From Macrocystis pyrifera (Eukaryota; Sar; Phaeophyceae; Laminariales; Laminariaceae), in assembly GCA_031763025.1 (NCBI GenBank), contig JASSKH010000001.1:22755840-22819839 (forward strand): DNA of 64,000 nt, read 5' to 3'. This document shows positions 8,873 through 61,373 of the stretch, piece by piece. Within the stretch, counting starts at the first letter, position 1; every line of letters starts with the position of its first letter. The position numbers and the translations under genes were made by a program. Below the pieces are notes generated by a model, which made no database searches, was not told the DNA's origin, and was given only the letters and a program-made list of their open reading frames with translations.

Positions 8873-11800
8873 GTGAAAAACATAATGGAGCCACAAAAAA
8901 GCAGTAGAAGCAGTGATACTGTTTTGGTATGTGTACTCTCGCCGCTCTCGCGACCCCCTGTTATTCGGGCCAAAACCAGATTGTGGAAACAGACAGCACA
9001 CCCTACGTGTTGGCGGCAACTTCACTATATTGTTTCTCGCTACGGCTAGCCTCGTGCCAGGAAGTGTGATATAAGCAGTATGCATAACGCGAATGAACCT
9101 GCCGAGTGATTTCTGAAGAAGATTTCTTGAGCTGCGTCGCGCGGGCCAGACCCAACGATCCAATACCTGGTCCGATCTTCCCAGATCGCGTATTTTCTCG
9201 TCTCTTCTCATTTTCCTGCGGTACAGGCCAGAGTAAATGGGACCAAATTTTGTTAGTAAAAGTAGGGAAATATGTAGTTTTTTGTGTGTACCGTAGGTGC
9301 TATATACTATGGTCCTCCGTAATATGAAACCACCAACTGCAAACGATACGCCCCACTCTCCCCCTTCCGCGCGACGGACATGAACAGTCCCCCTCTCTCC
9401 TTTTTTTTTCTCTCGGTTTTTGACGGTCATCTTTTCTGGCAGTCGAACTAGATCGCTTGTGCGGGGTGGAGAATGTTCACTCCGCACAAGGGCAATGGTC
9501 GTTTAACGCAGTGTACCTATGATAAGGCACCCACGAGACAGCCACATAGTGTACCTTGTGCTATCTCTTGAAGTGGCTACACCAGAAAACAAATGTGTTC
9601 ATTTCGACGATGTCATCCATATACAAGAAAGTCCGCCTCACAAGCAGTTCTTGGTACAGTAGGATGCAGCCTACCCTTCATGCGACTCGTCGAACACCTC
9701 ATGGCGCTTCGCGCTTGGTGCAAGCAATGTCTGTCTGGTCGACAAAAACCCGACGTGCTCCGTCCCTGCATTGTAGGGATGGATGCAAGGTTTATGATCA
9801 TACGGCTGCAACCATTCACGACATGAGTACACCCCCGATCCCTACCACCGCCTGTTCCACACAAAATTCATAGGTGTGGGGGGGGGAGTGCATCCATGTC
9901 GGCATGTATAACATGCTCCAGGGTGAAGATGCCAAGCTGGAAGGAGTTTCCAGGCTCGCTAAGGCCAGCGCATTGTGCACGCAGGAGCTCCTCTCTCGGT
10001 GCTTTCCCGGCGGCGACGACCCCGCTCCCAGCAAATGCACCCTCATGGATCTGGGTTCTGGATATGGAGGAATGGCGAGGGTGGCCGCCAAAGAATTCGG
10101 CTGCAAGGTGCGGGGACCGTCTCGTGTATTACCTGTACTATATCACGCTAGTACTTGCCTACGTTCGCATATCGGGTTCGAATGGCGGCAGCGAGAAAAA
10201 ATCCGTCCGTGCTATTTAGCCCCGCCGTCCAAGTGATGCAACTCCTTGTAGCTCAGAGCAGTAGGGACTAGGAGGCAAAGGAAGGGAGAGTGCGAGGGAT
10301 AACGACAACAACAACAGTTAACATGTAGAGGCTGTATCAAGCAAAATACCCCAACTTTGTTAGGCGTCGGACATCACGCCGTCTTTAGGAGATACACCCT
10401 GTTTTTTTCACATCTGTTTTATGAGCCCTAGTCAAAACCCATTTAACGAAAGTCGTTCGTTTGTTTGGTTTTCGACACATGTTTTCTCGTTTTGCATTTT
10501 TTTTTTTGTATTTGGGCCTTGAGTAGGTTCCAATTTTCCTGCGACAACACCGTCCGCTAACGGATTGGCACAGGCTCGTAGAACACGAGCTGAAACAAAC
10601 TAGAGAAACCAGGATCTCACCTCACTATGCAACATGAACGTTTCCTCCTTTGGACGATAACAGTGAAAATTTTGCGGGGTTGCCTTGCAATTACTCATCA
10701 GTATGGTCCCAACGTTAAGCGTAAAATGTAAGATGATATTGGTCCTACGCAGTCAAGTATTCGAATATTTGCGCGAAAAAAAAAAGCAGGCATGCCTTCG
10801 AATTCCTGGAACCACCTCGTTCAGAACATAACCTGAAACAAAAGTACAGATTCCTACGGAAACGCCTGACTAGTGTGACCTTAAAGTGAAGGCCTGGGGT
10901 TGGTCGGGACAAATCGTCACCGCCTTCCGCTATTCATGGAGGTCAGTATGATGCCAAGCATGTGGCATTAGAGCAGACATTGCATTCGTGGCTTACAAAA
11001 CATCAATCAGCTTGAACCTGGTCGTGTACGAAAAGAAAATCACGCTCAAGAGTCTGGGCGTCAACAGATAAAATTGCTACCCTTCGGTATTGCCCTCCCT
11101 TGCTACAGACATAAACGAATGAGCCTAAATGAAGTTATCATTACGTCCAAGGTCACTGTGTCTAACCGGATCAAGCGAACTACCTCAGGTTTATAGTGCC
11201 GGCTTGGCGGCCCTCTCAAAAAACAAAAAACACCCTTCTCTCTGCCGGATGCCTCCTGTGCTCATAGCTCCAAGCAAGTTGACTCGCGGAAACCCAATAT
11301 CTCCCTCCAATCTACGCGAACGCAAACTACCCATACTAAACTTCCCGTACCAAACCCCACGCGCACGCTTCTAAAGGTGGTGTGCATCAACGTCGCCAAG
11401 AAAGAGAATAGCATAAATTCCGCCCTGACCAAGGCCGCCGGGCTAGAAGACAAGGTCATCATCCCCGGGGAGAAGACGTTCTTCAACACGGGAATGCCGG
11501 ACTCCAGCTGCAACTTCGTCCTGTCGCAGGACTCGCTGCTGCACGCGGGATCACAACGACACAGGGCGCTGGCGGAGGCGGCGCGCGTGCTGAAACCGGG
11601 AGGTAAATTAGTGTTTACGGACATCATGCAGTCAGAGGAGGCTGAGGCTAAGGACTTGCAAGAGGTGAGGAGAGGAGAACCAAAAGCAGGAGGAATGGGC
11701 AGGTGGGCGGGCGGATGAGAGGGGGTGGCGTCGGCAACCGGCGGGGTCACGAACGGGAATAGCAAGGCAATGTTCGAGCGTCGCGCGTTTGTGCCAGACC

Positions 11801-18778: not shown

Positions 18779-18782
18779 CATA

Positions 18783-19060
18783 TGTTAAGATATTGTCTTG
18801 TATGAGATTGAAAGCCCGGTAACTACCTGGGTTCAGTCACTGGGAACGTATTTGTAGTACTTGGAAGGCGTATCTTAGATGGAAAACCAGGGGTTTTCCA
18901 GAGGAGCACGAGCTTGGTCTCAGTCTCCGCGTGCACGAAAGGAATAAAACTGCTCTTCTTCTATAGCTAAGCAAACAACACATGTGAGTGCAATGTTTAC
19001 CGACCTAAAAGGCAGACCTGTCCAGGGATACAAAGTGTCCCGCAACCCTTGATCTTAACA
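18783..19060 (+). repeat. 5' LTR
   Basis: 278 bp, starting TGTTAAGAT and ending ATCTTAACA (perfect 9-base inverted ends with TG...CA). It matches 32004-32281 except for four substitutions, all transitions. Confidence 0.95.
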
Positions 19061-19483: not shown

Positions 19484-20665
19484 ATGCCACGGCCACACGA
19501 TGGCACACTGGAATTCGTTGTTGAGCCTGCTTCCCGCGCTGCTCTATTAGGAGCTACAAACAGATATCCTGGAAATTACAGTGCTGGTTCGAGTTTTCAT
19601 GCTGCTGATAGCGGGAGCACCACGGCCGCTCGCGAAATTTTTCCCGCTCCTCGCCCACAAGATGGCACACTGGATTTCAGTATTGCGTCCTTTTCGCCCG
19701 CTGCTGTAACCACCCACGCCGATTCCACCGGATATTCCACTACTGATGCGAGTTTTAATACTGCTGTTAGTGAGGACGATGCTTTTGATAGGCCCCCCAG
19801 TACCGGAGTGCCCGCTACTGTGGCTACCCGCGGCGTTTCTGCTGAAAATTCTCGCCCTGATGCGAGTTTTAATACTGCTGTTAGTGAGGACGATGCTTTT
19901 AATAGGCCCCCCCGTACCGGAGTGCCCGCTACTGTGGCTACCCGCGACATTTTTGCTGAGAATTCTCGTCCTGATGCGAGTTTTAATACTGCTGCTAGAG
20001 AGGACGATGCTTTTGATAGGCCCTCCAGTACTGACGTGCCCACTGCTGTACGAGTAGCTACCCGCGGCGATCCGGTCTAGCATTCTCGTTCCGATGCGAG
20101 TTTTAATACTGCTGCTCGAGAGGATGGTGTTTTTGATAGGCCCTCCAGTACTGACGTGCCCACTGCTGTAGGTACCCGCGGCGATCCGGTCGAGCATTCT
20201 CGTTCCGATGCGAGTTGTAATACTGCTGCTCGAGTGGATGGTGTTTTTGATAGGCCCTCCAGTACCGACGTGCCCACTGCTGTAGCTACCCGCGGCGATC
20301 CGGCTGAGCATTCTCGTTCCGATGCGAGTTCTAATCCTGCTGCTAGAGGGGACGAGGCTTTTGATAGGCCCTCCAGCATCGGGGACGCGCCAATACCAAC
20401 TACACTTGCTGTTAGTACGCATATAAACCGCGACAGCCGCCACCCTATCACAACACCACCTAGGGTCGAGGCCCGCTCCCCAAGTGCTCGTAGTGCCCGC
20501 CGACTGGCGCGCCAGGCCTTGATCACAGCTATACAAGTTGCTGAAGCACAAGCTGCAGCTCCTGCCGCCGCTGTTCCTACCCATCACGACCCTGAGAACC
20601 GCCCTTTCCCGTCCTACCCCGCCTCGGTGTCCCCCCTGCCCCGGCGTCGCCCTTTGCCCTGGTGA
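19484..20665 (+). CDS. Retrotransposon leader ORF with 38-residue repeats (in-frame stop)
   Basis: A frame from ATG 19484 to the TGA at 20663-20665, interrupted once by TAG at 20078-20080. Equivalent positions in neighbouring repeats read GAG or GCT-GAG, so the stop is a point change. The product is mostly six copies of a 38-residue unit (DASFNTA..EDDAFDRP.STGVPTAVATRG...SRP), without a recognised domain. MPRPHDGTLEF at its start is echoed by APRPQDGTLDF 50 residues later. An A9 run at 19472-19480 separates it from an upstream frame containing the related MTTRDVATPG. It precedes gag by 22 bases; the function is unknown and it may be a gag N-terminal extension in intact copies. Confidence 0.55.
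19745..20434 (+). repeat. 114-bp tandem repeat array
   Basis: Units begin GATGCGAG at 19745, 19859, 19973, 20093, 20207 and 20321. The period is 114 bp (38 codons), with one 120-bp unit that has six extra bases. Because the period is a multiple of three the reading frame is kept, which suggests a repetitive protein segment. Confidence 0.9.
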
Positions 20666-20687
20666 TTTCCGCCCGCCCCGCTTCAGC

Positions 20688-23600
20688 ATGTCCCGGACAA
20701 CGAAAGCATGGGAGGGATCACCCAGCCCCGCCAGGTCTTCCAGAGGCCTGAGGACTTACGGCTCCTCCCCCTCTTCGGGAGCGAGGACACCCGAGACCGC
20801 GGGCCCCACGTCTCTGGACGACGCCGTGGACGTCGAGCCCCCGGACTCAGAGGACGAGCGACTGGCTACCGGGAAGGCCGCAGCACCGGCGGCCGAGGAC
20901 CCGGGCAGTGCCCAGGCACCCCGTCAACTACCTGGGGCGTGGACCTCCCTCTCGCCACAGGAGCAGGCGGCGGTGATCCAGCGTTGGGCCAACCAGTCGA
21001 GCCTCGAAGCGGGGACAACCGCCGATCGCCCCGCGCCCGGCCAGGCCGACACTGTCACGGCCGCGCGGGCTCCTGATGCCACGGACACCCACCCCGACGT
21101 CCTCGCGGCCGAGCAGGCTTTGGCCTCCGCCGAGGCCCTTGGGGCTGCCTCGGCGACAACGGCTAGTCGTCGAGCGCTGACGCATGTGTCGGCCGAGCTC
21201 GAGGCTGCAGCTGCCACCCGCGCCTCCAAGGCCGCCGCCGCCATCGGCACGGCTGCTGCCACGGCTTCCGAGGAAGCCGCTTGCTCCGCCTCTTGTGCGC
21301 GAGACTCCATATCTCGGGCTAGTGAGGCGCTGCGGGCTGCCCGGGCGGCTGCTTCCTCCGCGATCAGCCGGGCCGGCGAGACGAGGGCCTCACCGGAGAA
21401 CCTTCCACTTGCCTCCTCCACCGCGAAGGCCGCTCCAGCCCCCGGGCTTGGCCCCACGGACCCGTGTTCCCCCGCTGTGCTCGCGATCGACGCCCGGACC
21501 AAGCGTCCCGGGGATCTGGACTTTTTGCAGGGGAGTGTCGCCTGCATGGCGGCCGAGCCCAACCCGTGCTTCCCCCCCGAGGAGGCCGCTCTGGTGGTCT
21601 CTGCAGCTCGCCGCCTCCGACGCGAGCTGCCGGCCGAAGGCCTCTCGGTACACGACGCTTGGCTGGGAATGTCAGACGTCTCCTGGTCGGACCAACAGCT
21701 CCAGGCCTACACAATGGCTCTGGTGGTGAGCCTTCGGAGGGCCCATGAAGCGTCTTCTACCACGGTTCAATGGCCGAGACTGGCCGCGTACCAGCTTCAT
21801 TGCAGGCGGCGGTCGCGCGCTGCCCCCCAGGACCCCCCCCTCTCTTACTCGATCCCGGAAGCTGGACACCGCCCCACCTCCTCCAGCGGTCACCGGGGAA
21901 CTGGCGACAGCTCTGTGGCCGGAGACCGCGCTCGCAGCCGCGCCGGCGACCAGGCCCGCCAGCGCACGAGGGTTGGAGGGGATCCGGCCGGTCCAGACGG
22001 CAGGCTCCGCCGGGGCTCGGGCGGGGAAACGGGCGGCAGTTCGTCTCGGCGCAGCGGGACTGGACGGAGAAAAAACCGGTGGAAGGGGAAGGAGCGATCG
22101 GGTGACGGTCGGTACGGCCCGCGGGACAACTCTGGTCGAGCTACTTCCCCCAGCTCTTCCTCGGACGGCGACACCAGAGCCCCCGTTCCAGCGAAGCACG
22201 CAATCAGCAAGAGGCAAGTGATCCCCTCGCTGACTGAGGTTGCTTCTTCCGCCGCGCGTCTTGGTCGTTTGACCATGACCGATGACCGCGCCTTGCCTGT
22301 GTCATCTAACCTTGCTCACGACCGAACTTCGGCGATCGACTCCGCCGCCGCTGCCGCCGCGAAACAGCACGCTGCCGACGTACAACGGGCGTACAAACGC
22401 CTGGGACTGAAGGATATTTCGCGCATTTCTGTCTTGTCTTTCCCCTCCTCGATCGACCCTTGCGAGGCCGCACAGCAACTCATGCGTTCGGTAAAGGCCT
22501 CCGCCTCTGATATTCTCATGATGTGCAACGATGGCAGCCATGAAGGCCTTAGGTCTCCTAACTGGATCCCCGGTTGGGAGTACCCTCTCAAGAAATCCTT
22601 CGCGCGCGCCATCACGCCTGACAAGCCTACGACCGCCCCTCTCACTACCTTGATAGATGATTTTTTTGGACAGGTATCGCGCGCCCTCGCAGCAGGATCG
22701 TCGGGACCGGAGGCGTTCACGCTCCTCCTGAGGTTGCTGAGCAACCACTTTGACTGCACCAACACGGGGGCCAGCTACACCAAGTTGCATAATTTTGGCG
22801 TGGCTAACGGGACCCATTTTTGCGATTTTAGTCGTGCATTGCGAGGGGTGGTGTCCGCAGCGACGGGGACTGAGCGTGTTTTGGCACTAGGGGTGGAGGT
22901 CGTTTTGGAGGTAGTTCGGATGGCAGTGAACGAGCAGTACCCTAGCTTGATGCCGACGCTGTACCCGGGAGTTTTGGCTACGGTATCGAGGCCGTTCGGC
23001 ACTTTGGACGCCATGTGGTTAGCTTTCGAGACTCTTGCGAATAATAAGACACTTGCCGTCAACGGCGAAAAATATTTTTCTTTGCCTGCTTCTTCGACGG
23101 GTGCGCGGTCATCCGCCCCGTCGGGGCCCCGGCCCGCCAATATTGGTCGCGGCCAGGGCCGGACGCTTCCCCAGTCGCCTTCTTGGCAGACGGGATCGCG
23201 CAATAATCCGCTTGTGGTGAATGTCCACAAATCCATCCCTGACTGCCTCGACCCGTGGCTTGATACCTCTTCCAACTGCTGGCCCCTTGAAGAACACCAC
23301 TATGCCGAAGTTCACGCCGTTTGCATGTCCATCCAGACCGAGGACCCTCCCCTCTAGAGCGGCCTACTTTCATCGTCCTCCCGCGCAGCCGCCCTCAGCG
23401 AAAACCGAGGACGCTGTTTAAACTGTCACGAAGACACACACTCTCTTCGACAGTGTAGGCACCCCTTTTTAAACCTTAGTGGTATCTTGAACCCCGACCT
23501 CGGAACGCTCGGCGACGACGGCGAGGCGTTCCGTCGTTGGCAAGAACGCATGATCAGACACCGCCGCGAGAACAATTCACGACCGAACAAATACAACCAG

Positions 23601-24236
23601 AAGAAACACAGGCGTCGCCCCGGCCCCTCGCGTGGGCAACATCACGGCCAGGGTCAGCAACACAGACAAGGTGATGGCTACAGCACACACGCGGCACGAG
23701 GACACCAGCAGGCTCACCCCGGTCATCATGGTGGTTCGACCGCCCCTGCCTCTTCCGCCCCGGCTCCCGTCTCGGGGGTTCGCTACGGCGCCTCGCATAC
23801 CTCGGGCGGGAACCCGAATGGACTCCAGCCAGGCACCTTCCGCGCCGGTAACTGACAGGTCGACGGCGGTTCGGCTTCTCCTGACCGCCCGCCGCCAGCA
23901 TTGTCAGGAGAAAAAACCTTGATTTCACAAGATGCTCGCGTCCCAGGCTCGCTCAGTGCTCCGCTCCCGCCCCGCGCGTTACTCCGTACTTCGGACCGAC
24001 GCAGCGACTCAGCTCCACAGCTTTTTCCGGGGAGCCCTCGGGCGCCTTCCCCGATGTCGGGAGCCCGCGCCTCAAACGCCACTCCCCTCAACCTGGGCAC
24101 GAGAGCAGGCGCGATAAACGCCTCTCTCCCAAACCACGCACCGCGCAACACGACGGGTGTCGCGCCGTCGCGTCGTTCTTTCAGCGAGGGTGTCCCCCTC
24201 CTACACCTCCCGGCCATGCGGTGGCGGTCGGTTTGA
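20688..24236 (+). CDS. Gag polyprotein with CCHC zinc knuckle (stops at 23355 and 23853)
   Basis: From ATG 20688 (MSRTTKAWEG) one frame runs to 23355-23357 (TAG), then to 23853-23855 (TGA), then to 24236. A further open piece in the same frame spans 24279-24573. The N-terminal third is Ala-rich and probably helical, followed by a conserved block (about 21480-21780), a basic Ser/Arg region, a second conserved block (22350-23340) and the knuckle CLNCHEDTHSLRQC (C-X2-C-X4-H-X4-C, near 23411-23452). The stop at 23355 is TGG in the second copy at 61-64 kb, so it is a nonsense change in this copy or a read-through site. Gag forms the particle that packages the element RNA. Confidence 0.8.
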
Positions 24237-24610: not shown

Positions 24611-25840
24611 TCGGAAGAATCACAGCTCTCGTCAAGCAGAACGGGCTTAGAGCCCCCTGCCCCCTTTGGTCCAGGACAGAGATCATCGGGCGCTGCAAGA
24701 GAACCTTCTGGCGATTTTTTGCCTACGAGCAATGGTGACACAGAGCCAGTATACGTGGAACCGGACTCGTCTCGTGCACCAGGGGCTCAGTGTTCTCAGA
24801 GAAGCACACTCCCCCCCACACACGCCGCAACTGCGGCCACCGACGACTCGGTACCGTCGGTCTTTGACCCTACTCTCGAGTATACAACGGAGCGGGTAGT
24901 ACTGTTCTGGCAGCGCCCCTCTTATTTTTCGCAGTGGTGCCCCTCGTCTTTTGTCGTCGACGGTGTATCATACTCCTGCGCGGAGCAATATATGATGGCT
25001 GAAAAGGCTCGCCTTTTCCAGGACCACGGCACAGCGGAGCGGATTATTGCCTCGCCAGACCCACGCGAGCACAAACGCCTCGGTCGAGGCGTGCATAACT
25101 TCGACCGCGCTATCTGGGACCGTGTTCGGGAACACGCCGTCCTTGCTGGTAATTTTGCCAAATTCTCGCAGAACCCGGTCATGAAGCAGCACCTATTGAG
25201 CACTGGCACCAAAATTTTGGCTGAAGCCAGCCCTTTGGATGCCGTGTGGGGCATCGGTTTGCGGGCAGACGACCCCGAAGCTCACGACCCCTCTCGGTGG
25301 CGTGGAAAAAATTTGCGCGGTAAAGCTCTTTCCGCCGTTCGCGACACCCTCCGAGCAAATGAGGCCGGGTTGGCACACCCCGCCTCCTCTCACCAATTCG
25401 CACCCCAACCAGACCTGACAGAATTCATGAGATTACACCAGCGCCGCCCCGCCCTTTGGTCGTGGCCCGCGCTTGCCCAGGTCCTCCTTTGGAGTTTTCG
25501 ACCTATTTTTCTGACGCGCCGGCTGATCACAGCCCGGAGATTTTGGCTGTCGCACCTAGTGCCGACCCCTCCCTCGCGCTGCCAGAACACGGCCCCTGCC
25601 TCGTCGGGGGCACCATTACCCTCGATGACGCCTCTTTTACAACGAAAATCGCGATTCACAGCGGAGCTGGCGTTCTTGCACCTTTTGGTTGCGTGGCGCT
25701 TCTCGACACTGGTTCCCCGCAGACTTTCATCCGACGAGATGTTTTGGATCGCATGCACTCGGTTGGTGCGGCCTCCATCGCGTGCGAGCAGAAAGGCGCC
25801 CCTCGTTCTTGGGGGGGTGTTGGCGATTCGGCCCCTCTGA
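24611..25840 (+). CDS. NADAR (YbiA-like) domain inside the retrotransposon
   Basis: This frame is open from 24611 with no ATG before the domain, so it must be made as part of the polyprotein. The domain occupies about 24893-25361. Recognisable NADAR elements in order: FSQWCPSSFVVDG, AEQYMMAEKARLF, KRLGRGVHNFD..IWD, GNFAKFSQNP, LLSTGTKILAEASPLDAVWGIGL, WRGKNLRGKAL..VRDTL. The Glu of AEQY and the WG of VWGIGL, characteristic of the family, are kept. NADAR proteins were predicted to act on NAD/ADP-ribose compounds, and bacterial members are reported to remove ADP-ribose from guanine in nucleic acid. After about 25390 this frame leaves the coding track and the protease continues one frame back (-1). 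The domain call is strong; its role here is unknown. Confidence 0.88.
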   Translation, partial: SEESQLSSSRTGLEPPAPFGPGQRSSGAAREPSGDFLPTSNGDTEPVYVEPDSSRAPGAQCSQRSTLPPTHAATAATDDSVPSVFDPTLEYTTERVVLFWQRPSYFSQWCPSSFVVDGVSYSCAEQYMMAEKARLFQDHGTAERIIASPDPREHKRLGRGVHNFDRAIWDRVREHAVLAGNFAKFSQNPVMKQHLLSTGTKILAEASPLDAVWGIGLRADDPEAHDPSRWRGKNLRGKALSAVRDTLRANEAGLAHPASSHQFAPQPDLTEFMRLHQRRPALWSWPALAQVLLWSFRPIFLTRRLITARRFWLSHLVPTPPSRCQNTAPASSGAPLPSMTPLLQRKSRFTAELAFLHLLVAWRFSTLVPRRLSSDEMFWIACTRLVRPPSRASRKAPLVLGGVLAIRPL

Positions 25841-26052
25841 AGACTTCGACGAGTGTGCGCCTGAGCGTCCAATTTTTTCGAGAAAATGAGCCTACTTGCT
25901 CTCTCGCAGTTTGGGCCTGCGTGTTCCCCCCCTCGGTGGTGCAGCATGCTGTACTATTGGGACGTGACAGCTGGATGCGCTTTAATAGCCGCTCCTACCG
26001 CTCTCTGCCACCTCGGCCCTCTGATCAACGCGTTTTTGGCGAGCTGGAGTAA
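25363..26052 (+). CDS. Retrotransposon aspartic protease
   Basis: The frame is open from 25363 (after a TGA at 25360) to a TAA at 26050-26052. The active-site motif is LLDTGSPQTFIRRDVL, with the catalytic Asp codon at 25705. VVQHAVLLGRDSWMRF later resembles the ILGRDWL block that closes retroviral-type proteases. It would cleave the Gag-Pol polyprotein. It overlaps the NADAR frame by up to 480 bp and lies in -1 relative to it, so either programmed frameshifting or a deletion connects the two. The TAA separates it from reverse transcriptase in the same frame and is probably a mutation. Confidence 0.8.
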   Translation, partial: GRVGTPRLLSPIRTPTRPDRIHEITPAPPRPLVVARACPGPPLEFSTYFSDAPADHSPEILAVAPSADPSLALPEHGPCLVGGTITLDDASFTTKIAIHSGAGVLAPFGCVALLDTGSPQTFIRRDVLDRMHSVGAASIACEQKGAPRSWGGVGDSAPLKTSTSVRLSVQFFRENEPTCSLAVWACVFPPSVVQHAVLLGRDSWMRFNSRSYRSLPPRPSDQRVFGELE

Positions 26053-26073: not shown

Positions 26074-28221
26074 ATGTCCGTGTACGCCATCGACTCCGCC
26101 GCTTTGGGTGGAGGCTTCCATCTACGCTACGAGGGCGCAGCAGGCGTCACCCTGTCAGACGATCCCCAGCTGCTTGCTGTTAATTTGGTTCGAAGCGATG
26201 GCTCCCCGGCCCTCACTAGACACTACTTGGTCGACATGATGCCCCAGCCCGACCTACTCTCGGTCGAGGAGCACTTCGTCTCCTCCGGACGACAGGTTCT
26301 TCCCCTCGTTGGAGTGGCGGCTCTCGAGCCGGGGGATGTCCTCGGCGTCACCCACGCCCCACTGCTGAGCGTTCCGTTGGACGTTTTGCAGCAGGACAAC
26401 CGAGCCCCCAGCCCTCCCTCCGGACTAGGTGAGGTGTGTCCGGTTTCAGCAGTTACTACTCCCCCCCCCCCCCCCCCCGCAGTTCCAGCCTCGCCCTCGC
26501 CTGCACTGCTTGAGGGTTTGACCTCAGAACAGCGCGCTTCGTTCCTGCGCGTCTGGGCACGCTTGCCGACACATCTGCGGGAGGTGGCTTTTGATCTCCA
26601 CGGCACAGGCTGGACCTCTGCCGTCATTGAACAGCTGGGGGACGTTACCTGCGAATTCCCTGACGTTTTCTCGACGTCCAAGTCGGATTTTGGTTCCTGC
26701 TCGTTGATGCCTTTCGTGATCTCGGTCCCGCAAGGAAGCGCTCCTGTCACGTCCAGGCCGCACCGCATCAACCCCATCCTGGCCAAGGAAGTGGAGGCCA
26801 CCTTGGATCAGTACCTAGCGGCTGGTCTGATCCAGCACTCGACTTCTCCGTACTCGAGCCCGCTGGTGGTCATCCCGAAGAAGTCTGGAGGCGTTCGGAT
26901 CACCGTGAACTACAAAAAACTCAACCAGATCAGCAAACTCAGCCAGCTGCCTATCCCTCGCGTGGACCAAGTCCTCGACTCCCTGGGGAAGGGACGGGTG
27001 TTTTCCCTCTTCGATTTGGTCTCCTCGTTCCACCAGATTACCGCGCACAAGGACACTGTCCCTCTTACGGCGTTCTGCACTCCCACGGGCCTTTACGAGT
27101 GGCTCGTCATGCCCCAAGGCAGCAGTGCTTCGCCCGGCTGGTTCGTCAAAGTGATTAACGAAGTCATTAAAAGCCTGGCACAGGTGGCGGCCTACCTTGA
27201 TGATGTGATCGTTTTCGACTCTGACCCGACGGCCCACGTCAAGACGATACGAGCCCTCTTCGAACGCCTGCGCAAACACAACCTCAAGCTCTCCCCCTCG
27301 AAGGCTCGCCTCGGCGCCACGGACGCCAATTTTCTGGGCCACTCTATTTCGCCCGCGGGTATAAGCCCTAATGCGGACAAAGTTTCAGCCTTGCTGAAAA
27401 TGCCCATGCCCAAGAACCTCAAGCAGGTCTGCGCCCTGATGGGCGGCGTAGGATATTTTCGCAAATTCCTGCCCAACCTGTCTAAACGGATACGTCCTCT
27501 CACCGCCCTTCTCTGGAAGGGGGTCAAGTATGTCTTCACGCCGGCTATGGAAGTTATCGTCAGCCAGATCCTCACCGAGCTCGCGGCCCCACCGATTTTG
27601 GTCTTCCCTGACTGGGATGCCGTAGCCGACGGCTCCCGCCCCTTCCACGTCTACTGCGACGCCTGCATCGACGGTTTCGGTGCCGCGCTCGAACAAGAAC
27701 AACCGGACGGCTCGGTACGGCCCATTGCTTATATCAGCCGCGCTACTCTCGATTCCGAAAGGCACTGGACACCGTTGGACCTGGAAGTTGGCAGCATTGT
27801 CTGGGCCATCAAACGACTCCGAGGTTACCTGTGGGGCACGAAGTTTCGAATATTTTCGGATCACAAAGCACGTGAGAGTATCGCCAAAGTAGGGGACCAC
27901 AACGCGCGAGTCCAGCGGTGGCTCGAGTTGCTCACCGCGTTCGACTACACCCTCGAGTACCGCAAGGGCAGCGCCAACGGAAATGCTGACTTTCTCTCCC
28001 GCTTGCCAGAGCCCGCCACAGAACACGACCTAGCTGCCTCAACCCCGTCGAGGACGGTGGTATCTTCCTCATCCGAGCCTGTGGGCTTCGCACTCGCTCT
28101 TCGCCGACCCCTGGTGTCGGTTTGGGTGGGCTGGTGTCCCGCAGTGAAAGTGCCGTCTTGGGTGGGCTACCTCTCGCCCCTTCGGATTTTCGCGATTTTC
28201 GCACACACGGGCCACGTATGA
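26074..28221 (+). CDS. Reverse transcriptase-RNase H
   Basis: 715 codons from ATG 26074, same frame as the protease. RT lies at about residues 225-420: SPYSSPLVVIPKKSGGVR, VFSLFDLVSSFHQI (catalytic Asp314), AYLDDVIVF (Asp376, Asp377) and NFLGHSISPAGI. RNase H lies at about 520-645 with all four acidic residues visible: YCDACIDGFG (529), DLEVG (571), FSDHKA (596) and GNADFLSRL (639). The order RT-RNase H before integrase is Ty3/gypsy. The N-terminal 200 residues continue the protease-RT linker and include a poly-Pro stretch. The last 50-60 codons are off-frame: the linker to integrase continues in the -1 frame from about 28040. Motifs are intact, so inactivation is by stops and shifts rather than active-site loss. 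Confidence 0.92.
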   Translation: MSVYAIDSAALGGGFHLRYEGAAGVTLSDDPQLLAVNLVRSDGSPALTRHYLVDMMPQPDLLSVEEHFVSSGRQVLPLVGVAALEPGDVLGVTHAPLLSVPLDVLQQDNRAPSPPSGLGEVCPVSAVTTPPPPPPAVPASPSPALLEGLTSEQRASFLRVWARLPTHLREVAFDLHGTGWTSAVIEQLGDVTCEFPDVFSTSKSDFGSCSLMPFVISVPQGSAPVTSRPHRINPILAKEVEATLDQYLAAGLIQHSTSPYSSPLVVIPKKSGGVRITVNYKKLNQISKLSQLPIPRVDQVLDSLGKGRVFSLFDLVSSFHQITAHKDTVPLTAFCTPTGLYEWLVMPQGSSASPGWFVKVINEVIKSLAQVAAYLDDVIVFDSDPTAHVKTIRALFERLRKHNLKLSPSKARLGATDANFLGHSISPAGISPNADKVSALLKMPMPKNLKQVCALMGGVGYFRKFLPNLSKRIRPLTALLWKGVKYVFTPAMEVIVSQILTELAAPPILVFPDWDAVADGSRPFHVYCDACIDGFGAALEQEQPDGSVRPIAYISRATLDSERHWTPLDLEVGSIVWAIKRLRGYLWGTKFRIFSDHKARESIAKVGDHNARVQRWLELLTAFDYTLEYRKGSANGNADFLSRLPEPATEHDLAASTPSRTVVSSSSEPVGFALALRRPLVSVWVGWCPAVKVPSWVGYLSPLRIFAIFAHTGHV

Positions 28222-29765
28222 GGATTGACGACCTCTCTACTCCTTCGGGGAGATTCGTCGCTCGTGTATCTGCCTCCGTCGCCACCGTCGACCGCCGTCC
28301 TGGCTTGGGGGATTTTTCACCCCCCGCCAACGTCGCTTTCGCTTCGGTTTTTGTCGTACCCTCCGGGGGCGACCAAGGCTCTGCAGAAGCCCCCGCTGCA
28401 GCGACGTTTGTCGCTCAGCGCGCTCCTCCCCCGACGAGCACTTTACAGGTCGAAGATTCCGTCGTGAGCACTGCTCCGGCCGCGTCTTCCCTCTCAGGCC
28501 AGCGGCCTGCAAAAGCCCCCGCTGCAGCGATGATTGTCGCTCAGCGCGCTCCTCCCCCGACGAGCACTTTACAGGTCGGAGATTCCGCCGTGAGCACTGC
28601 TCCGGCCGCGTCTTCCCTCTCAGGCCAGGGCTCTGCAAAAGCCCCCGCTGCAGCGATGATTGTCGCCCAGCGCGCTCATCCCCCGACGAGCACTTTACAA
28701 GTCGAAGATTCCGTCGTGAGCACTGCTCCGGCCGCGTCTTCCCTTTCATGCCAGGGCTCTGCAGAAGCCCCCTCTGCAGCGACGATTGTCGCCCAGCATG
28801 CTCCTTCCCCGACGAGCACTTTACAGGGAAAATATTCCGCCGTGATCACTGATCCGGCCGCGTCTACCCCATCGCCGCCTGGCAACCCGGCGCCTCCGAA
28901 TGTTTGGCCGTCTTCAGGCCGCATCTCATCGCGGACGGGCCGACGAACAGCCGCCGCCGCTGGCGCCGTGCCGCCTGCTGTTGATTATGGCTTCGGGCCC
29001 GGCGAGACCCCTAGACCATCAGCCCGGCGCGCTACCACCCCGCTGCGAGCCCCACGGCCACGACCGCCCGCACCCGTCGTTTTGGCCCCGACTCCTGCCG
29101 CCTCGTCCGTCCCGACGGCACCCATCCCGTCCGGCCGCGACCGCACCGAGCCCGTGGGAACTCCTCTGTTACGACTTCCGCCGCCAACTGACGCACCTCC
29201 CGTCACCTCGACCGACTTGGACGCACTCGGCGCAGCTGCCGAGTTTCAGTTCGGTGATTCCGCAGCGCGCTATTCGCACGCCGACTGGGCTCGGGAACAA
29301 CAGGCTGAGCCCGCGTGCAATGCCGCCATGCGCTACATAGCCCTTGGCCGACCGGAAGTTTTGCCAGGTGACTTTTTATCAGGTTTCCCTTCCCGCCAGC
29401 GCCCTCCCATTTCGGACGTTCAAGAGCTGGTCACCAAAGGCCGCTTGCACACCACTGACGCGGGCATCGTTCTACTTGTCCGACAGCCGTCTCCCCCTCC
29501 TGCGTTGGATACGCCACGCCCGGTGGACCGTACGGCCTGCTTATTGAACGACGAGCCTATTCGCATTTATGTTCCGCTGCTCATGCGCCCCTGGGTCATG
29601 CATTCTTGCCATTCTACGGCTTCCTGCCACCTAGGAACCGCGCGCACCCTACGTATGCTCGAACGTTTCTACTGGTGGATTGGCATGAGCATCTGCACCC
29701 GGTGGTGGCTACGCAACTGCTTAAAGTGCCAGGCACGGAAAACGTCGCGGCAGACGGTCCGGTAG
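28041..29765 (+). CDS. RNase H-integrase linker with repeats and integrase zinc-binding domain
   Basis: The frame is -1 to reverse transcriptase, open upstream of 28041 and ending at TAG 29763-29765. It starts near EDGGIFLIRACGL..SSPTPGVGLGGL, passes through four 42-residue repeats (28381-28884) and a Pro/Ala/Arg-rich spacer. A retroviral-integrase-type zinc domain follows: MHSCHSTASCHLGTA and, 26 residues on, RNCLKCQARK (HHCC). This domain normally lies directly before the catalytic core, which follows in the same frame after the TAG. The TAG is therefore an in-frame interruption between two halves of integrase. Long repeat-bearing linkers at this position are unusual for Ty3/gypsy elements. 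Confidence 0.75.
   Translation, partial: NPVEDGGIFLIRACGLRTRSSPTPGVGLGGLVSRSESAVLGGLPLAPSDFRDFRTHGPRMRIDDLSTPSGRFVARVSASVATVDRRPGLGDFSPPANVAFASVFVVPSGGDQGSAEAPAAATFVAQRAPPPTSTLQVEDSVVSTAPAASSLSGQRPAKAPAAAMIVAQRAPPPTSTLQVGDSAVSTAPAASSLSGQGSAKAPAAAMIVAQRAHPPTSTLQVEDSVVSTAPAASSLSCQGSAEAPSAATIVAQHAPSPTSTLQGKYSAVITDPAASTPSPPGNPAPPNVWPSSGRISSRTGRRTAAAAGAVPPAVDYGFGPGETPRPSARRATTPLRAPRPRPPAPVVLAPTPAASSVPTAPIPSGRDRTEPVGTPLLRLPPPTDAPPVTSTDLDALGAAAEFQFGDSAARYSHADWAREQQAEPACNAAMRYIALGRPEVLPGDFLSGFPSRQRPPISDVQELVTKGRLHTTDAGIVLLVRQPSPPPALDTPRPVDRTACLLNDEPIRIYVPLLMRPWVMHSCHSTASCHLGTARTLRMLERFYWWIGMSICTRWWLRNCLKCQARKTSRQTVR
28381..28884 (+). repeat. 126-bp tandem repeat, four units
   Basis: Units start CTGCA at 28381, 28507, 28633 and 28759, exactly 126 bp (42 codons) apart. 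They encode A.KAPAAA.IVAQRAPPPTS-type segments. The frame is preserved through all four, and the fourth unit is the most diverged. Confidence 0.92.
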
Positions 29766-31472
29766 TCCTCCGTCACGTTGCCCTTGCCAGAAGGGCCCGG
29801 CATCGCCGTCAGCATCGACTATTTCGGCCCCCTCCCGGTGACGCCTCGAGGTAATACCTACATCTTGCTTTTCACGGATCGTTTCAGCCGCCGAGCTGAC
29901 ATGTACGCCGTCACAGCGGCCGAGTTCACTGCTGAGGGCACGGCTAACATTCTCATCAACCGGTATATCCCTCTTTGGGGGTGCCCGCGCAGCATCCTCT
30001 CGGACAACGGCCTCCAGTTCTGCTCCAAGCTTTCGCACGCCGTATATCAGCTTCTCGGGGTTCGAAAAATTGCCACCAGCTCCTACCACCCAAACGACAA
30101 CGGTGGGGTGGAACGTGTAAACCACACGATGGCCCAGATGTTGGCAATGGTCGTCAACGAGCTCCAAAACAACTGGGATGAACACCTCCCTCACGTCGAA
30201 TTTGCGTACAACAATTCCGTCAGTGCCGCCACGGGTCTGGCTCCCAACGAGGTCCATATGGGTCGGCTCCCACGCCTCCCACTCACGATTTTCGAACGTG
30301 CAGGGGTCGCCGGCCACCAGAGCTTGACCCGCGACCATCCCGCCTACTGCGACTTGGCGACGGACCGCCAGCAGCGCGCGTACGACATCGTTCGAGAACA
30401 CCACGCCCTCACTGTCGCTCGCGTGAACCGCCGCAATTCCGCCCTCTCCGACGCTCTGCGTCCGGTCCCCAAATTTGACGTTGGTGGTTGGGTGTGGGTG
30501 TACAATACGGCGGCCACCATCCGCCAGGGCGCGAAACCAGACACGGACGCCAAGGTCCTCAAGGCCAAACTCTCCCTCAACTGGACGGGTCCCTACAAAG
30601 TTCTCGCAGTTGGCCCCTGCTCCTCTGCGGACACCCCGGATGGATCTCCTCTCGGAGCAAAGCTCCTGTATTTGGATCTTCCTTCCGATATGCCCGGCGC
30701 CGAGGCTCGCCGGCGCGTATCTGTTGAACGCTGCAAGCCCTGTGCCAACCCCCACGACCGTGGCGACATGCAGAAGTATTTGCCGGCGGGGTTGACGCAA
30801 TACGTGCTCAACAATTTCTCCAAGAAATCTCCTCCGTACCACGTCACCGAGGACGACGTTTCGACCACTCTTGAACGACCCGAAGTGGAAAAGATTACTG
30901 GACATCAACCGGTTAGAGGTCGAGGTGGCGTCATCGCGGTGATGTACGAGACGCACTGGAAGGGACTTTCCCGGCCATCCTGGGAACGGGAAATGGACAT
31001 TCAGCTTTCTCGCCACGTAATTTTGCGCTACTGGGCCGGCACCCCGAACCAACACCGCCAAACCAACCGCCTGTATCACCGAATGAGAATTGGCGCGGCA
31101 CAACGGGAGCTTTCCCGGAGTAACGGCGAGCGGTTTCTAGCACCCGGCTATGGTTGCGTATCGCACGCCGATTGGCTCCGCCGATACAGCAACACTGTAC
31201 TTCCCAATGGGACCCACTTTTGGTACAAGGGCGACGACCGTCTGTGGTGGCTCGGAAAAATCAGCGCAACTACACCGACGGATGGAGTATATTTAGTTCG
31301 ATTTTTGGACGACCCGGGACCAATCAAGCTTCCTCTTTCTCCGGCGCGCTACACGACTTCGACGAGAGCTGTACGAGGTTCTTGGTGTCTGAATATTCAC
31401 TTGGCTAGCGCGTTTACACCGGGGATCCAGCGTAACGTAGATGAATCTCGAGGTGCCGCCGTGGATAGCTGA
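29766..31472 (+). CDS. Integrase catalytic core, chromodomain and Tudor/SH3-like C-terminus
   Basis: This continues the frame of 28041-29765 after one TAG. The catalytic triad is complete: Asp in VSIDYFGPL (29817), Asp in LSDNGLQF (30003) and Glu in GGVERVNH (30111), with 61 and 35 intervening residues, the D,D(35)E spacing. A chromodomain follows at about 30882-31040 (VEKITGHQPVRGRGG, YETHWKGLSRPSWERE, HVILRYW), a module that in chromoviruses directs insertion to particular chromatin. A further segment at about 31209-31360 (GTHFWYKGDDRLWWLGKI, VYLVRFLDDPG) has the look of a small SH3-like beta barrel such as Tudor; that assignment is tentative. The stop is the TGA at 31470-31472. Confidence 0.88.
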   Translation, partial: SSVTLPLPEGPGIAVSIDYFGPLPVTPRGNTYILLFTDRFSRRADMYAVTAAEFTAEGTANILINRYIPLWGCPRSILSDNGLQFCSKLSHAVYQLLGVRKIATSSYHPNDNGGVERVNHTMAQMLAMVVNELQNNWDEHLPHVEFAYNNSVSAATGLAPNEVHMGRLPRLPLTIFERAGVAGHQSLTRDHPAYCDLATDRQQRAYDIVREHHALTVARVNRRNSALSDALRPVPKFDVGGWVWVYNTAATIRQGAKPDTDAKVLKAKLSLNWTGPYKVLAVGPCSSADTPDGSPLGAKLLYLDLPSDMPGAEARRRVSVERCKPCANPHDRGDMQKYLPAGLTQYVLNNFSKKSPPYHVTEDDVSTTLERPEVEKITGHQPVRGRGGVIAVMYETHWKGLSRPSWEREMDIQLSRHVILRYWAGTPNQHRQTNRLYHRMRIGAAQRELSRSNGERFLAPGYGCVSHADWLRRYSNTVLPNGTHFWYKGDDRLWWLGKISATTPTDGVYLVRFLDDPGPIKLPLSPARYTTSTRAVRGSWCLNIHLASAFTPGIQRNVDESRGAAVDS

Positions 31473-32003: not shown

Positions 32004-32281
32004 TGTTAAGATATTGTCTTGTATGAGATCGAAAGTCCGGTAACTACCTGGGTTCAGTCACTGGGAACGTATTTGTAGTACTTGGAAGGCGTATCTTAGA
32101 TGGAAAACCAGGGGTTTTCCAGAGGAGCACGAGCTTGGTCTCAGTCTCCGCGTGCACGAAAGGAATAAAACTGCTCTTCTTCTATAGCTAAGCAAACAAC
32201 ACATGTGAGTGCAATGTTTACCGACTTAAAAGGCAGACCTGTCCAGGGATACAAAATGTCCCGCAACCCTTGATCTTAACA
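32004..32281 (+). repeat. 3' LTR
   Basis: 278 bp with ends TGTTAAGAT and ATCTTAACA. It differs from the 5' LTR at four transitions (for example AGATTG/AGATCG and AAAGTG/AAAATG) and is followed by the CATA duplication. Confidence 0.95.
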
Positions 32282-32285
32282 CATA

Positions 32286-38512: not shown

Positions 38513-38858
38513 GTCGATGCAGCCAGAACGTTGACCTGGCGCCGGTCTCGCTTTGCAAGACCGGGATGCTACCATCAGGCGGGGTGACATAGCCATCACT
38601 ACTGCGCCGTGTGACACGCAAGAAAACGGACTGCGTCGGACAATTTCCACGCTGATTTTTCTCGACAACGAAGAGAGTGCAAACGCCGAGCGGCGAGTCT
38701 ATGGAACAATACCAACAACCTCGCGTTTCGACCGCGCCGGTTGCAGACCCACCATCCCACCCCCTCTCACAATCTCATCCTGCTCCTGCCTGCCTCCCCT
38801 CCCCTCCCCCCTCCCCCCCCTCCCCTCCCCCCCTCTGCCCCCCTTCCGTAATTCTCAC

Positions 38859-39147
38859 TTCTTGTAGGTCCTTGGCCTCGGCCTCCTCCGACTGCATGAT
38901 GTCGGTGAACACCATCCTGCCGCCGGGCTTCAGGACGCGCGCCGCCTCGGCCAATGCCTTGTGTCGCTCCGACCCCCGCGTGGAGCAGCGCATCCTGGGA
39001 GCAGACCACGTCGCAGCTGGAGTCCGGCATGCCCGTTTCGAAGAACGACTTCTCCCCGGGGATGATGATCTTGTCTTCTAGCCCTGCGGCCTTGGTCAGG
39101 GCGGCATTGACACCGTTCTCTCTCTTCGCAACGTTGATGCAGACCAC
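38859..39147 (-). pseudogene. SDMT-like gene 2, exon 3 remnant with frameshift
   Basis: 289 bp instead of the 288 bp found in genes 1 and 3. The extra base lies in the C-run at 38973-38977 (G5 on the coding strand in ...CACGCGGGGGTCGG; gene 3 has G4). Before it the frame reads VVCINVAKRENGVNAAL...LLHAG; after it LAEAARVLKPGGRMVFTD is in another frame. Confidence 0.82.
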
Positions 39148-39833
39148 CTTGGGTAGGCATGCGCACAGGGAGTGGTAGGTTTGACGGGGGTAGAAGGGGC
39201 GGGGGGGGTGGGCTGGCGGGCGGCGTCAGCGGTGTGACCTGGCGATGTGAAAGGTTTCCGCACGCCTCTTCGATCCGCCTTTATGTGCTATTCAGAGAAA
39301 ATCTTCTTGAGAGCTGAAAAAATATAAATCTCCCTTCCTCCCTCCCTCCCTCCCTCCCTCCTCCCTCCCTCCCTCCCTCCCGTCCTGCGCTTTTCAGAAC
39401 TGAAGCACCGGAGCGCAGGAGCTACGCTGCAGGACAAGAACAGCGTCTCCCATGCTGCCACGCACGAAGTGCCACCCAAAACCGTGAGGATATTGTACAA
39501 CAGGCACGACACATCGCAAAACCTCGCCCAGTACCTGCAGCCGAGCTCCTCGGCGGCCACTGGTGCTCCGCACCGGGAATGCCAAGAAAACAACGTGAAA
39601 ACCTGGACTATTCTTCAGCGCCTCAACGGACGTCAAAGATGGCTGACTGACAATCAAGTTGGTCCGTCAAGGTCTCTTCATACTTAATCTAATACGGTAT
39701 TTTTTAGTGTACGGGCACATCTCTTTGACGGTTTTCCATGACGTCCGTCCTTGACGCCTTCCCTAGGCGGCTTTCCGTCAAGGGGTGATAGTGCCATTAA
39801 CCGACATCGTTGCCGGACGCCTGGGGGCCTCAC

Positions 39834-43764: not shown

Positions 43765-46700
43765 ACTCATGCCATGCATGGCCGTAATCGTATGACCCCA
43801 AACCCTCGCATCCCTACAATACCCAGACGGAGCATGTCGGGTTGTCGCCGACCAGGCACACATTGCTTGCACCGAGCGCGAAGCACCGTGAGGTGTTACG
43901 CGAGTCGTATAAAGGGTGAGCTGCATCTTACTAAGGACCGCTTGTGAGGCGGATTTTCTTGAATGGTAGCATTACTAGACCATATCTCCCCCAGGCTGCG
44001 CAAGAGACTTTGTGCCTCGGTGCGGGCACGTGCGTGATGACGTTTGTTGAAGGTTGGAAAGCGGTCGAGAAAAGGGCATCTCCGTCGGTAATTGACACCA
44101 AAGGGCCTATCGTAGGTATCCCGAGTCGCGCTCTCATCCATGACATATACGGTCCGCCTTTGGCGCGTAGCAACAGGAGGGCATTCTTCAACGAGCCCAG
44201 CAGGCACACCACCAACTCTCAACGTCTACCATACTTCTGCAGCCACAGATAAGAGAACCAGCCCATCCCCCTCCAGCGCGCTTTTGTTTGTTTTTGGGCG
44301 GCGACCACGGCTAGCGGTCGGGTCAGATCATTTTTGTGCGGAGAGAACGTTAACTCCACACAAGGGGGATAATCGTATCACAGTGTGTATATGTTGGGGC
44401 ACCCACGAGGCAGTTACATAGTAGACAACATTACTGTCTCTGAAAGTGGGCACGCCAAAAAATAAATCAACACATTGACGCTGTCGTCCATATGCACGAA
44501 AATCCGCCTCAATAGCGATTCTTAGTTGGATACTGCTCACCCTTCATGCGACTCGTCCAACAGCTCACGGCGCTTCGCGCTTGGTTCAAGCAATGTCTGC
44601 CTGGCCGATGAAAACCCGATGTGCTCCGTCCCGGCATTGTAGGGATGCGAGGGTCTACGGTCATACGACTACGGCCATGCATGATAACGAGTACACCCCC
44701 CCCCCCCGCCTCCGTCCGCTTCCCTCTCCCTCACCTCTTGCAAATCCTTGGGTTCAGCATCTTCCGACTGCATGATATCGGTGAACACCATCCTGCCTCC
44801 AGGCTTCAGCACGCGCGCTGCTTCCGCCAGCGCCCTGTGCCGCTCCGACCCCGCGTGCAGCAGCGCGTCCTGGGAGCAGACGACGTCGCAGCTGGAGTCC
44901 GGCACGCCCGTGTCGAAGAACGATTTCTCCCCGGGGATCACGATGTTACCCTCTAGACCGGCGGCCTTGGTCAGGGCGGCGTTGATTCCATTCTCCCTCT
45001 TGGCGATGTTGACGCACACCACCTTGGGGGGGGCGTTACAATGCAGGGGCGTGCCAGGACAGGCGGTGTATGGCGGGGGGGGGGGGCAGGACGTCGTACA
45101 TACAGATAGTCTTATTACTCTCGTCGAAATCACCTTATTGGGCACGTGGAGAAGAGGACGGACGGAGCTCGCCATCCCAGACAAGACCAAGGCTTAGGCC
45201 ACGACCACGACCGAGACACCAGCTCGCGTAACAAAGTTTGCACCGCACGTACTCGATGAAAGGGGCTCGATTGTGCACGAAAACAAACAAATCGATTTGT
45301 TCGGCACCAAGCAGTCCGCACGCAGCTCGCGGCGGGTACGCAACAACTCTCCTCCTCTCAAAAAACCCGCCACAGGACGCTCCTCGGCACCAACCGGGGG
45401 GGGGGTGGTTCACGAAAGGAATGCCGAAACAAAAATGAGCAAAACCCCGAACATCGACATATTTTTAACCACCAAACCGGTGGATTGGCCTGCACCGTGG
45501 CACCTACTGTAACTGCTTTCCCTGACGGCCTCATCTCACCTTGCAGCCATGCTCCTTGGCCGCCACTCGCGCCGTCCCTCCGTACCCGGAGCCCAGGTCC
45601 ATGAGAGTGCACTTGTCGGGAGCGGGGCCCTTGCCGGCGGGGAAGCACCGGGCGAGGAGCTCCTGAGTGCTCAGGCAGCTCGCCTTCGTGATCTTGGGCA
45701 CTCCTTCCAGCTCCGCATCATTACCCCGGAGCTTAGTGTACAGACCCACGTGGATGTGTTCTCCTCCCCACACCTGCGGGAAGGGTTTCGAATGGAGTAG
45801 TGGGTGTTGGGGATAGGGGACGGGGGAAGTTTTTGTCCGTCAAGAATGACACCCGTCGGCCGGGGGGGGCGGGGGGGGTCCTTTGAAGTAGGAGGTGATG
45901 GTGACAGGGAAAACGTTTCCGCTTGTTTTAATTTTGCCTGCCTGTGGGTGTGGGGGGGTCGTTAAAAGCAGGGGATGGGGGGGACAGGGGACGGGGACAT
46001 TTTCGTCTATGTTAACGCTACCTGCGGGGGAGGGTCGAAAGAGGGGGTGGTGGGACGGGGGACTCGGGATGTTCTCGTCTGGCAAAATGGTGTCATAGTC
46101 CCCAGGAATCAACAAGACAAATGGACCCGCAAGCGGTCTCCTCCCCGTGCCTGCGGGATAGAGTGTTTCGGAAAGGGGGGTGGGGACAGGGGACAGGGGA
46201 CGTTATCGTCACCCATATTGCTCCCCAGGGATCAAGGAGGAAACCTGGACCCATATAGAATATGAACGAGGCATAACATCGGCCTAAAGTCATATTTTAT
46301 GTTATTAACTCAAGGTTTTTCAGCCGATCGCACGCAAAAAAAAAAAACGACAGATCTCGATATAGCAAGCAACTCCTCGAGAAAAAATCGAGCGTCAACA
46401 GGAGAACACAAGAAGAAGCGCCAAAATAATCCGTTTGCGCGCACGAAAATTTCGTGTATCGATTGGTGCTCGATTCGCATGCCCACCCTATGATATCGGG
46501 CTTGTTCTGCTGTCATTACTATCGTTCCGCTAACTGTACCGCTGCAATACCTTTAAAATACTCGAGCCTTACCGCTGTGACTGCTACTGTCCCCGCTGCT
46601 ACTGCTGCCACTACTACAACTACTACTACTACTACTACAACCATGGCCACTACCACTACTACCACCACTATCACTATAACCACCATCACCACCAACCCCA

Positions 46701-60826: not shown

Positions 60827-61373
60827 CAGGGCTTTTCGCGGGTCAGGTCAAACCTCACGGGTCGGGTCGGGTCGGGTCGGGTCAGCTAACCCGACCTGAC
60901 ACCCGACTCGACCGCGAAAATATTGAGGTGTGTGGACTTGACCCGACCCGACCCGCGAGATTTTGAAACCATCATGACCCGACCCGACCCGACCCGACCC
61001 GCGAGATTTAACAAACTGCTGATCCGACCCGACCCGACCCTTGAGATTTGAAAATCTCCTAACCCGACCCTACCCGACCCGCGAGATTTCAAAACCTCCT
61101 GACCCGACCCGACCCGACCCGCCACCTTCCGATTGACCCGTGAGACACGGGCTTCATGCGGGTCGGGGTCTCCTTGACCCGCGATATCATTTACCTTGAC
61201 CCGCGGATTCGACCCACGAATCTGGCACGTGGGTCGAAACTTCAAAAACAATTAAATACTCATTTTGTGCACCGCAGCGATATGTGGCCTGGCTGTAGTG
61301 GGTATGGATGGATGCGGACATGCGTATATGGATTTGGCGATGTTTTAATGTTTGAACATCATACCAAAGGAGT
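60827..61373. mobile_element. Half of a second hAT-like GGGTC element
   Basis: Starts CAGGGCTTTTCGCGGGTCAG and follows, in reverse orientation, the right half of the element at 54951-55849 (down to about 55361), including the segment GGATGCGG.CATGCGTATATGG. The match stops at ATACCAAAGGAGT, exactly where gag sequence begins. The preceding 8 bases (GATTTAGG) would be its target duplication if the other end exists beyond the window. Confidence 0.75.

What the first reader, a model, noticed from the sequence alone, without database searches (positions are those of the whole stretch)
24611..25840. NADAR domain embedded in a Ty3/gypsy retrotransposon polyprotein
Between gag and protease lies a nearly complete NADAR/YbiA-like domain (AEQYMMAEKA, KRLGRGVHNFD, FAKFSQNP, ASPLDAVWGIGL, WRGKNL). 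It has no ATG of its own, so it is polyprotein-encoded. NADAR is not a standard module of LTR retrotransposons. The family acts in NAD/ADP-ribose chemistry and some members remove ADP-ribose from guanine in nucleic acids. A retrotransposon carrying one might erase ADP-ribosylation marks that a host places on element RNA or cDNA, or might act on NAD in the particle. I do not know whether such fusions have been reported.
Basis: partly seen in the sequence, partly recalled or inferred. Interest (0 to 1): 0.88.

Follow-up and report, generated by a model that had tools for sequence, protein, structure and literature searches.

The report
NADAR enzyme domain in algal retrotransposons
A jumping gene in this eukaryotic (probably algal) genome carries a complete, well-preserved copy of an enzyme domain that in relatives strips ADP-ribose from guanine in DNA and RNA; such fusions were already reported from the brown alga Ectocarpus in 2025, and what the enzyme does for the element is still unknown.

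The parts
18783..19060 (+). 5' LTR, 278 bp, TG...CA
   Evidence: direct repeat with 32004-32281, ends read
18779..18782 (.). target-site duplication CATA (left); right copy at 32282-32285
   Evidence: read directly from the flanks printed
20523..23855 (+). gag region (frame interrupted once at 23355-23357 in this copy); zinc knuckle CX2CX4HX4C at 23415-23456
   Evidence: ORF list; motif read by eye, no Pfam hit for it; second gag copy at 61373-64000
23853..23855 (+). gag stop TGA followed by CAG; the same in 11 of 11 fetched copies whose gag end could be aligned (of 14 fetched)
24905..25354 (+). NADAR domain, complete (profile 2-163/163); active-site codons E 24983-24985, K 25004-25006, E 25223-25225, and the K75 equivalent 25073-25075
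25363..26052 (+). aspartic protease frame; LDTGS active-site motif 25702-25716
   Evidence: weak Pfam Asp_protease_2 E 0.042; homologous to the protease that follows NADAR in one frame in relatives
26872..27348 (+). reverse transcriptase RVT_1
   Evidence: E 2.7e-28
27634..27942 (+). RNase H (RT_RNaseH)
   Evidence: E 2.2e-29
29574..29744 (+). integrase zinc-binding domain H2C2
   Evidence: E 3.3e-12
29796..30092 (+). integrase core rve
   Evidence: E 9.7e-8, 32.6 bits, at the cut-off of 32.6
30882..31034 (+). chromodomain-like stretch after the integrase
   Evidence: Chromo E 0.0019, 18.5 bits, below cut-off 25.1
32004..32281 (+). 3' LTR, 278 bp

Best explanation
An LTR retrotransposon of Ty3/gypsy order whose Pol polyprotein begins, after a roughly 350-residue low-complexity linker, with a YbiA-type NADAR domain that has an intact active site, followed by protease, RT, RNase H and integrase. 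Shown: anatomy, copy number, active-site conservation, long-term constraint, and a gag UGA stop with Pol in the same frame in 4 of 11 copies. Inferred: Pol, NADAR included, is made as a Gag-Pol fusion by reading through the gag UGA, so a minority of particle proteins carry NADAR into the particle, where protease may release it. Inferred: the domain hydrolyses ADP-ribose from guanine bases (or an ADP-ribosylated small molecule) and so keeps the element's RNA or cDNA copyable when a host enzyme ADP-ribosylates it. The domain was most likely taken up once by an ancestor of this lineage, from a stramenopile cellular NADAR gene or a common source.
For: Profile, fold and active site. Protease downstream of NADAR in 58 of 61 copies examined in the own genome, 210-466 nt away; RVT_1 in the same ORF in 6 of the 120 listed of 2296 relatives found (three of the 6 checked with Pfam). 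Active-site residues in 61 copies: E43 59, K50 59, K75 60, E125 61. In 893 distant protein pairs NADAR 50%, protease 49%, linker 21% identity. Gag stop TGA-CAG in 11 of 11 alignable copies and the window; two copies open from it to NADAR. Tree: main set of retrotransposon NADARs one clade 98/87, beside brown-algal stand-alone NADARs 97/78. Biochemistry of relatives: E43/K50/E125-type residues needed (PMC11543638); NADARs reverse guanosine ADP-ribosylation on RNA (PMC11833690).
Against: No host guanine ADP-ribosyltransferase is known here; my searches for DarT, PARP and KptA families did not complete. Within families A and B dN/dS of NADAR (0.54, 0.60) equals that of the linker and is only a little under simulated neutral values (0.64-0.96). 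13 of 61 copies have a stop inside NADAR. E. coli YbiA has a riboflavin-pathway role, so the substrate need not be nucleic acid. The junction shows no special RNA structure (z +0.44); only 4 of 11 copies have gag and NADAR in one frame, and 6 of 14 copies have a Met upstream of NADAR in its open frame, so a separate start is possible. Two relatives (P0193, P0220) fall outside the main clade (single origin not rejected, AU p 0.188).
Confidence: 0.4

Rival explanations
1. The domain acts in RNA processing or repair of the element's RNA intermediate, or on soluble ADP-ribose derivatives and NAD-derived signals, rather than on ADP-ribosylated guanine.
For: Proposed by the Ectocarpus authors (RNA processing) and by the viral NAD+-ADPr survey for NADARs embedded in RNA-virus polyproteins (passages).
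Against: No such reaction by a NADAR was shown in the passages read here; [quoted passage not shown]
Confidence: 0.22
2. The fold serves as an ADP-ribose reader that tethers the integration complex to ADP-ribosylated chromatin or DNA breaks; hydrolysis is incidental.
For: The lineage described in Ectocarpus carries chromatin-reader domains at the integrase end (weak chromodomain here); the fold binds ADP-ribose (8bau).
Against: E43, K50 and E125 are all kept, more than binding alone should need; the domain is at the other end of Pol from integrase.
Confidence: 0.13
3. A neutral passenger captured once and carried by hitch-hiking.
For: Within-family dN/dS of 0.54-0.60, the same as the linker; stops inside NADAR in 13 of 61 copies.
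Against: Between distant families NADAR is as conserved as protease (50% against 49%) while the linker is at 21%; catalytic residues kept in 59-61 of 61; pN 0.35 with saturated pS 0.74.
Confidence: 0.05
4. As to origin: NADAR was picked up directly from bacteria, as the Ectocarpus authors suggest, and not from a cellular gene of the algal lineage.
For: Authors' blastp hits outside Ectocarpus were nearly all bacterial; named bacterial NADARs reach up to 58% identity to the window.
Against: Brown-algal stand-alone NADARs are the sister group in two careful trees (85/69; 97/78) and lie beside the retrotransposon set in a quick one (support 84); bacteria lie elsewhere. None of these sister supports is decisive and the direction between element and host gene is not resolved.
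Confidence: 0.2

Closest known systems
Ectocarpus Gypsy lineage with NADAR (e.g. Gypsy-12_Ec32), Genome Biol 2025, PMC12477816
   Same: Ty3/gypsy, YbiA-family NADAR at the N terminus of Pol, chromodomain after integrase in the example, all families of one lineage
   Different: Another, unnamed 537-Mb genome; sequence not compared directly (the element's letters were not in reach); the parts of the paper seen do not speak of active-site residues, of conservation against protease or of the gag stop, and 'stop codon' and 'readthrough' occur 0 times in its main text
Tx1 LINE ORF1 of Crassostrea gigas with NADAR (same paper)
   Same: NADAR inside a retrotransposon protein
   Different: Non-LTR element, divergent NADAR; not examined here
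NADAR embedded in polyproteins of positive-strand RNA viruses, PMC9503650
   Same: NADAR as a polyprotein domain along with a polymerase
   Different: RNA viruses, no reverse transcription (passages)
Phytophthora nicotianae NADAR 8bau
   Same: Fold, ADP-ribose pocket residues E43/K50/E125
   Different: Stand-alone enzyme; 35% identity in the structural alignment
DarT1-NADAR toxin-antitoxin and phage NADARs
   Same: Superfamily and proposed logic of undoing guanine ADP-ribosylation
   Different: They have Asp (DarT1-linked) or His (phage gp30.3) where this has Glu

Membership tests
NADAR superfamily, YbiA family | Pfam NADAR match over the whole profile | tested here: met
   E 1e-49, 2-163 of 163
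NADAR superfamily, YbiA family | YbiA fold | tested here: met
NADAR superfamily, YbiA family | E43 and K50 (P. nicotianae numbering) | tested here: met
   both present in the window; 59 of 61 copies each
NADAR superfamily, YbiA family | Glu in the last strand (E125), which marks the YbiA family | tested here: met
   61 of 61 copies
NADAR superfamily, YbiA family | hydrolysis of guanine-linked ADP-ribose | not testable with these tools
   needs an enzyme assay
DarT1-associated (BC4488) NADAR | Asp in place of E125 | tested here: not met
   Glu
Ty3/gypsy LTR retrotransposon | LTRs TG..CA with short target duplication | tested here: met
   278 bp, 4 differences in 279 compared bases, CATA
Ty3/gypsy LTR retrotransposon | order PR-RT-RH-IN | tested here: met
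   (protease below the Pfam cut-off, recognised by motif and homology)
Ty3/gypsy LTR retrotransposon | primer binding site and polypurine tract | tested here: inconclusive
   sequence after the 5' LTR read but no tRNA match made; ARAGORN found 0 tRNAs in the window
Ectocarpus NADAR Gypsy lineage | NADAR at the N terminus of Pol | tested here: met
Ectocarpus NADAR Gypsy lineage | C-terminal chromodomain on integrase | tested here: inconclusive
   E 0.0019, under cut-off
Ectocarpus NADAR Gypsy lineage | placement in the same RT clade | not tested

The most novel reading that the evidence does not exclude
Algal retrotransposons carry a Gag-Pol-borne guanine de-ADP-ribosylase because their hosts restrict reverse transcription by ADP-ribosylating element RNA or cDNA: an undescribed eukaryotic anti-transposon defence and its counter-measure, parallel to DarT and phage NADARs.
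Probability: 0.2. Interest if true: 0.88.

Novelty: new member of a known kind. Interest (0 to 1): 0.45.

Why it matters
If the domain acts on element nucleic acid, it points to nucleic-acid ADP-ribosylation as a way in which a eukaryote restrains retrotransposons; I saw no report of that in the listings (titles and abstracts only, open-licence papers). The 150 or more copies, the kept active site and an existing substrate assay make it directly testable. It also gives a case where an enzyme of NAD chemistry has long been a fixed part of a Ty3/gypsy lineage.

Full report

The element. LTRs 18783-19060 and 32004-32281 differ at 4 of 279 compared bases, begin TG and end CA, and are flanked by CATA on both sides, so this is a rather young insertion of about 13.5 kb. 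Inside, in order: gag with a zinc knuckle (read by eye), NADAR, aspartic protease (LDTGS; weak Pfam, E 0.042), RVT_1, RNase H, integrase H2C2 and rve, and a chromodomain-like stretch below the Pfam cut-off. This copy is damaged: gag is interrupted once, the linker before NADAR changes frame, and NADAR and protease are in different frames. Less damaged copies exist.

How widespread. The host genome (537,376,219 bp, 223 contigs) returned 150 NADAR places over cut-off out of 150 scored, from 1264 candidates; the tool scores only the best candidates, so this is a lower bound. I fetched 60 of these 150, 40 from the upper half of the list and 20 from its lower part. With the window that is 61: 58 have the protease downstream on the same strand, 210-466 nt away (three do not within the piece: L043, L055, L068), 39 in the same frame, 23 open from NADAR through protease, and 13 have a stop inside NADAR. 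At 85% linkage they fall into one group of 44 with the window, one of 16 and one single; the two large groups are on average 48% identical in NADAR. In the protein collection a NADAR-protease alignment found 2296 proteins, of which 120 were listed; all 120 carry NADAR and 6 also RVT_1 in the same ORF; three of the 6 were checked with Pfam and show NADAR, RT and RNase H. A simple protease pattern was found downstream in 86 of 124 examined.

Constraint. In the 61 copies E43 is kept in 59, K50 in 59, the K75 lysine in 60, E125 in 61. In 118 proteins from the retrotransposon search (not each shown to have protease): E43 94 of the 98 that reach that position, K50 116, E125 111, K75 116. In 96 proteins with both domains, 893 of 4560 pairs are distant (protease under 60%): mean identity NADAR 50%, protease 49%, linker 21%, the linker taken only where it is longer than 40 residues. 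Codon comparison by the Nei-Gojobori method between the two families: NADAR pN 0.353, pS 0.741 (saturated), protease pN 0.313, pS 0.692. Against: within families (45 and 16 rows), dN/dS is 0.54 (0.45-0.64) and 0.60 (0.41-0.87) for NADAR, 0.46 and 0.57 for protease, and 0.56 and 0.52 for the linker, with simulated neutral pN/pS 0.64-0.96, so recent copies, many of them dead, show little. The sample was chosen through NADAR profile hits, which favours conserved NADARs; a protease-anchored sample could not be obtained.

How it is expressed. In 14 copies I read the 1.4 kb upstream of NADAR. Gag's end could be aligned in 11; all 11 and the window end in TGA followed by CAG (in L162 the frame that ends there rests on a 32% match because gag itself is shifted). 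In 4 of 11 gag and NADAR are in one frame; in 2 of these the frame runs without a further stop from the TGA to NADAR (352 and 354 codons) and without any Met, the other 2 have two stops. Of the 14 copies, 8 have no Met in the stretch open to NADAR and 6 have at least one, so a start of its own is possible in some. Copies differ in a run of 5-10 A about 55 bases after the stop. The simplest reading is readthrough of the gag UGA, giving Gag-Pol with NADAR as the first folded domain of Pol; frameshifting on the A run, an internal start or a non-AUG start are not excluded. The RNA fold at the junction is not unusual (z +0.44). Readthrough is inferred.

Origin. In a tree with bacteria, viruses, brown-algal stand-alone NADARs and others, the main set of retrotransposon NADARs is one clade (98/87) and its sister is the brown-algal stand-alone group (97/78) of Ectocarpus, Pylaiella and Scytosiphon proteins; without viruses the pair has 85/69, and in a first quick tree the fork that holds both, with three unnamed rows, had 84. 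This speaks for a stramenopile cellular source, or exchange with it, rather than a direct bacterial gift as the Ectocarpus authors thought, but support is moderate and the direction is open. P0193 and P0220, which have the same kind of protease, fall outside; one origin for all is not rejected (AU p 0.357, 0.188). One Ectocarpus ORF without protease (P0292) lies inside the clade.

What is known. Genome Biol 2025;26:320 (PMC12477816; [quoted passage not shown] So the kind is known. Of papers holding both NADAR and Gypsy as whole words there are 2, that one and an unrelated one; of 104 with 'nadar' and 'retrotransposon' 30 were listed, and by title and abstract no other concerns this; two searches listed 5 and 0 papers, none on it.

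Mechanism. NADARs were the only hydrolase family tested that reversed guanosine base ADP-ribosylation in RNA (PMC11833690, passages), and they do so in DNA (PMC11543638, passages). A particle-borne NADAR could therefore keep element RNA or cDNA copyable if the host ADP-ribosylates it. Anatomy about 0.95, active enzyme about 0.8, nucleic-acid substrate about 0.5, defence against a host modification about 0.2 (my estimates).

Noticed in passing
window 61373-64000: A second copy of the gag part, 83-84% identical to 21146-23760, cut off by the window end.
   Followed up: partly
window 19745-20376: 114-bp tandem repeats, 5.5 copies, between the 5' LTR and gag.
   Followed up: no
window 28373-28869: 126-bp (42-codon) tandem repeats, 3.9 copies, in the linker between RNase H and integrase.
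   Followed up: no
window 23911-23916 and L159-L172: A run of 5-10 A about 55 bases after the gag stop differs in length between copies and so changes the frame; possible slippage site or mutation hot spot.
   Followed up: partly
window 11374-11679, 38854-39150, 44720-45025: Three fragments 82-85% alike that read like a SAM methyltransferase (LKPGGKLVFTDIMQ; motif recognised from memory, no profile run).
   Followed up: no
P0018, P0024, P0021, P0236: Brown-algal stand-alone NADARs have an N-terminal Cys/His-rich stretch, perhaps a zinc finger, without a Pfam match in the three tested (P0018, P0021, P0024).
   Followed up: no
P0096: A protein with a macro domain (PF01661) and NADAR in one chain.
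   Followed up: no
P0193, P0220: Retrotransposon-type NADAR-protease proteins from JGI metagenomes whose NADAR falls outside the main clade; second acquisition, replacement or long branch.
   Followed up: partly
P0292: Ectocarpus sp. CCAP 1310/34 ORF of 301 aa with a NADAR inside the retrotransposon clade but no protease; possible domesticated or broken copy.
   Followed up: no
phage collection: 673 of 50,697 phage records encode a relative of this NADAR, all under 60% identity.
   Followed up: no
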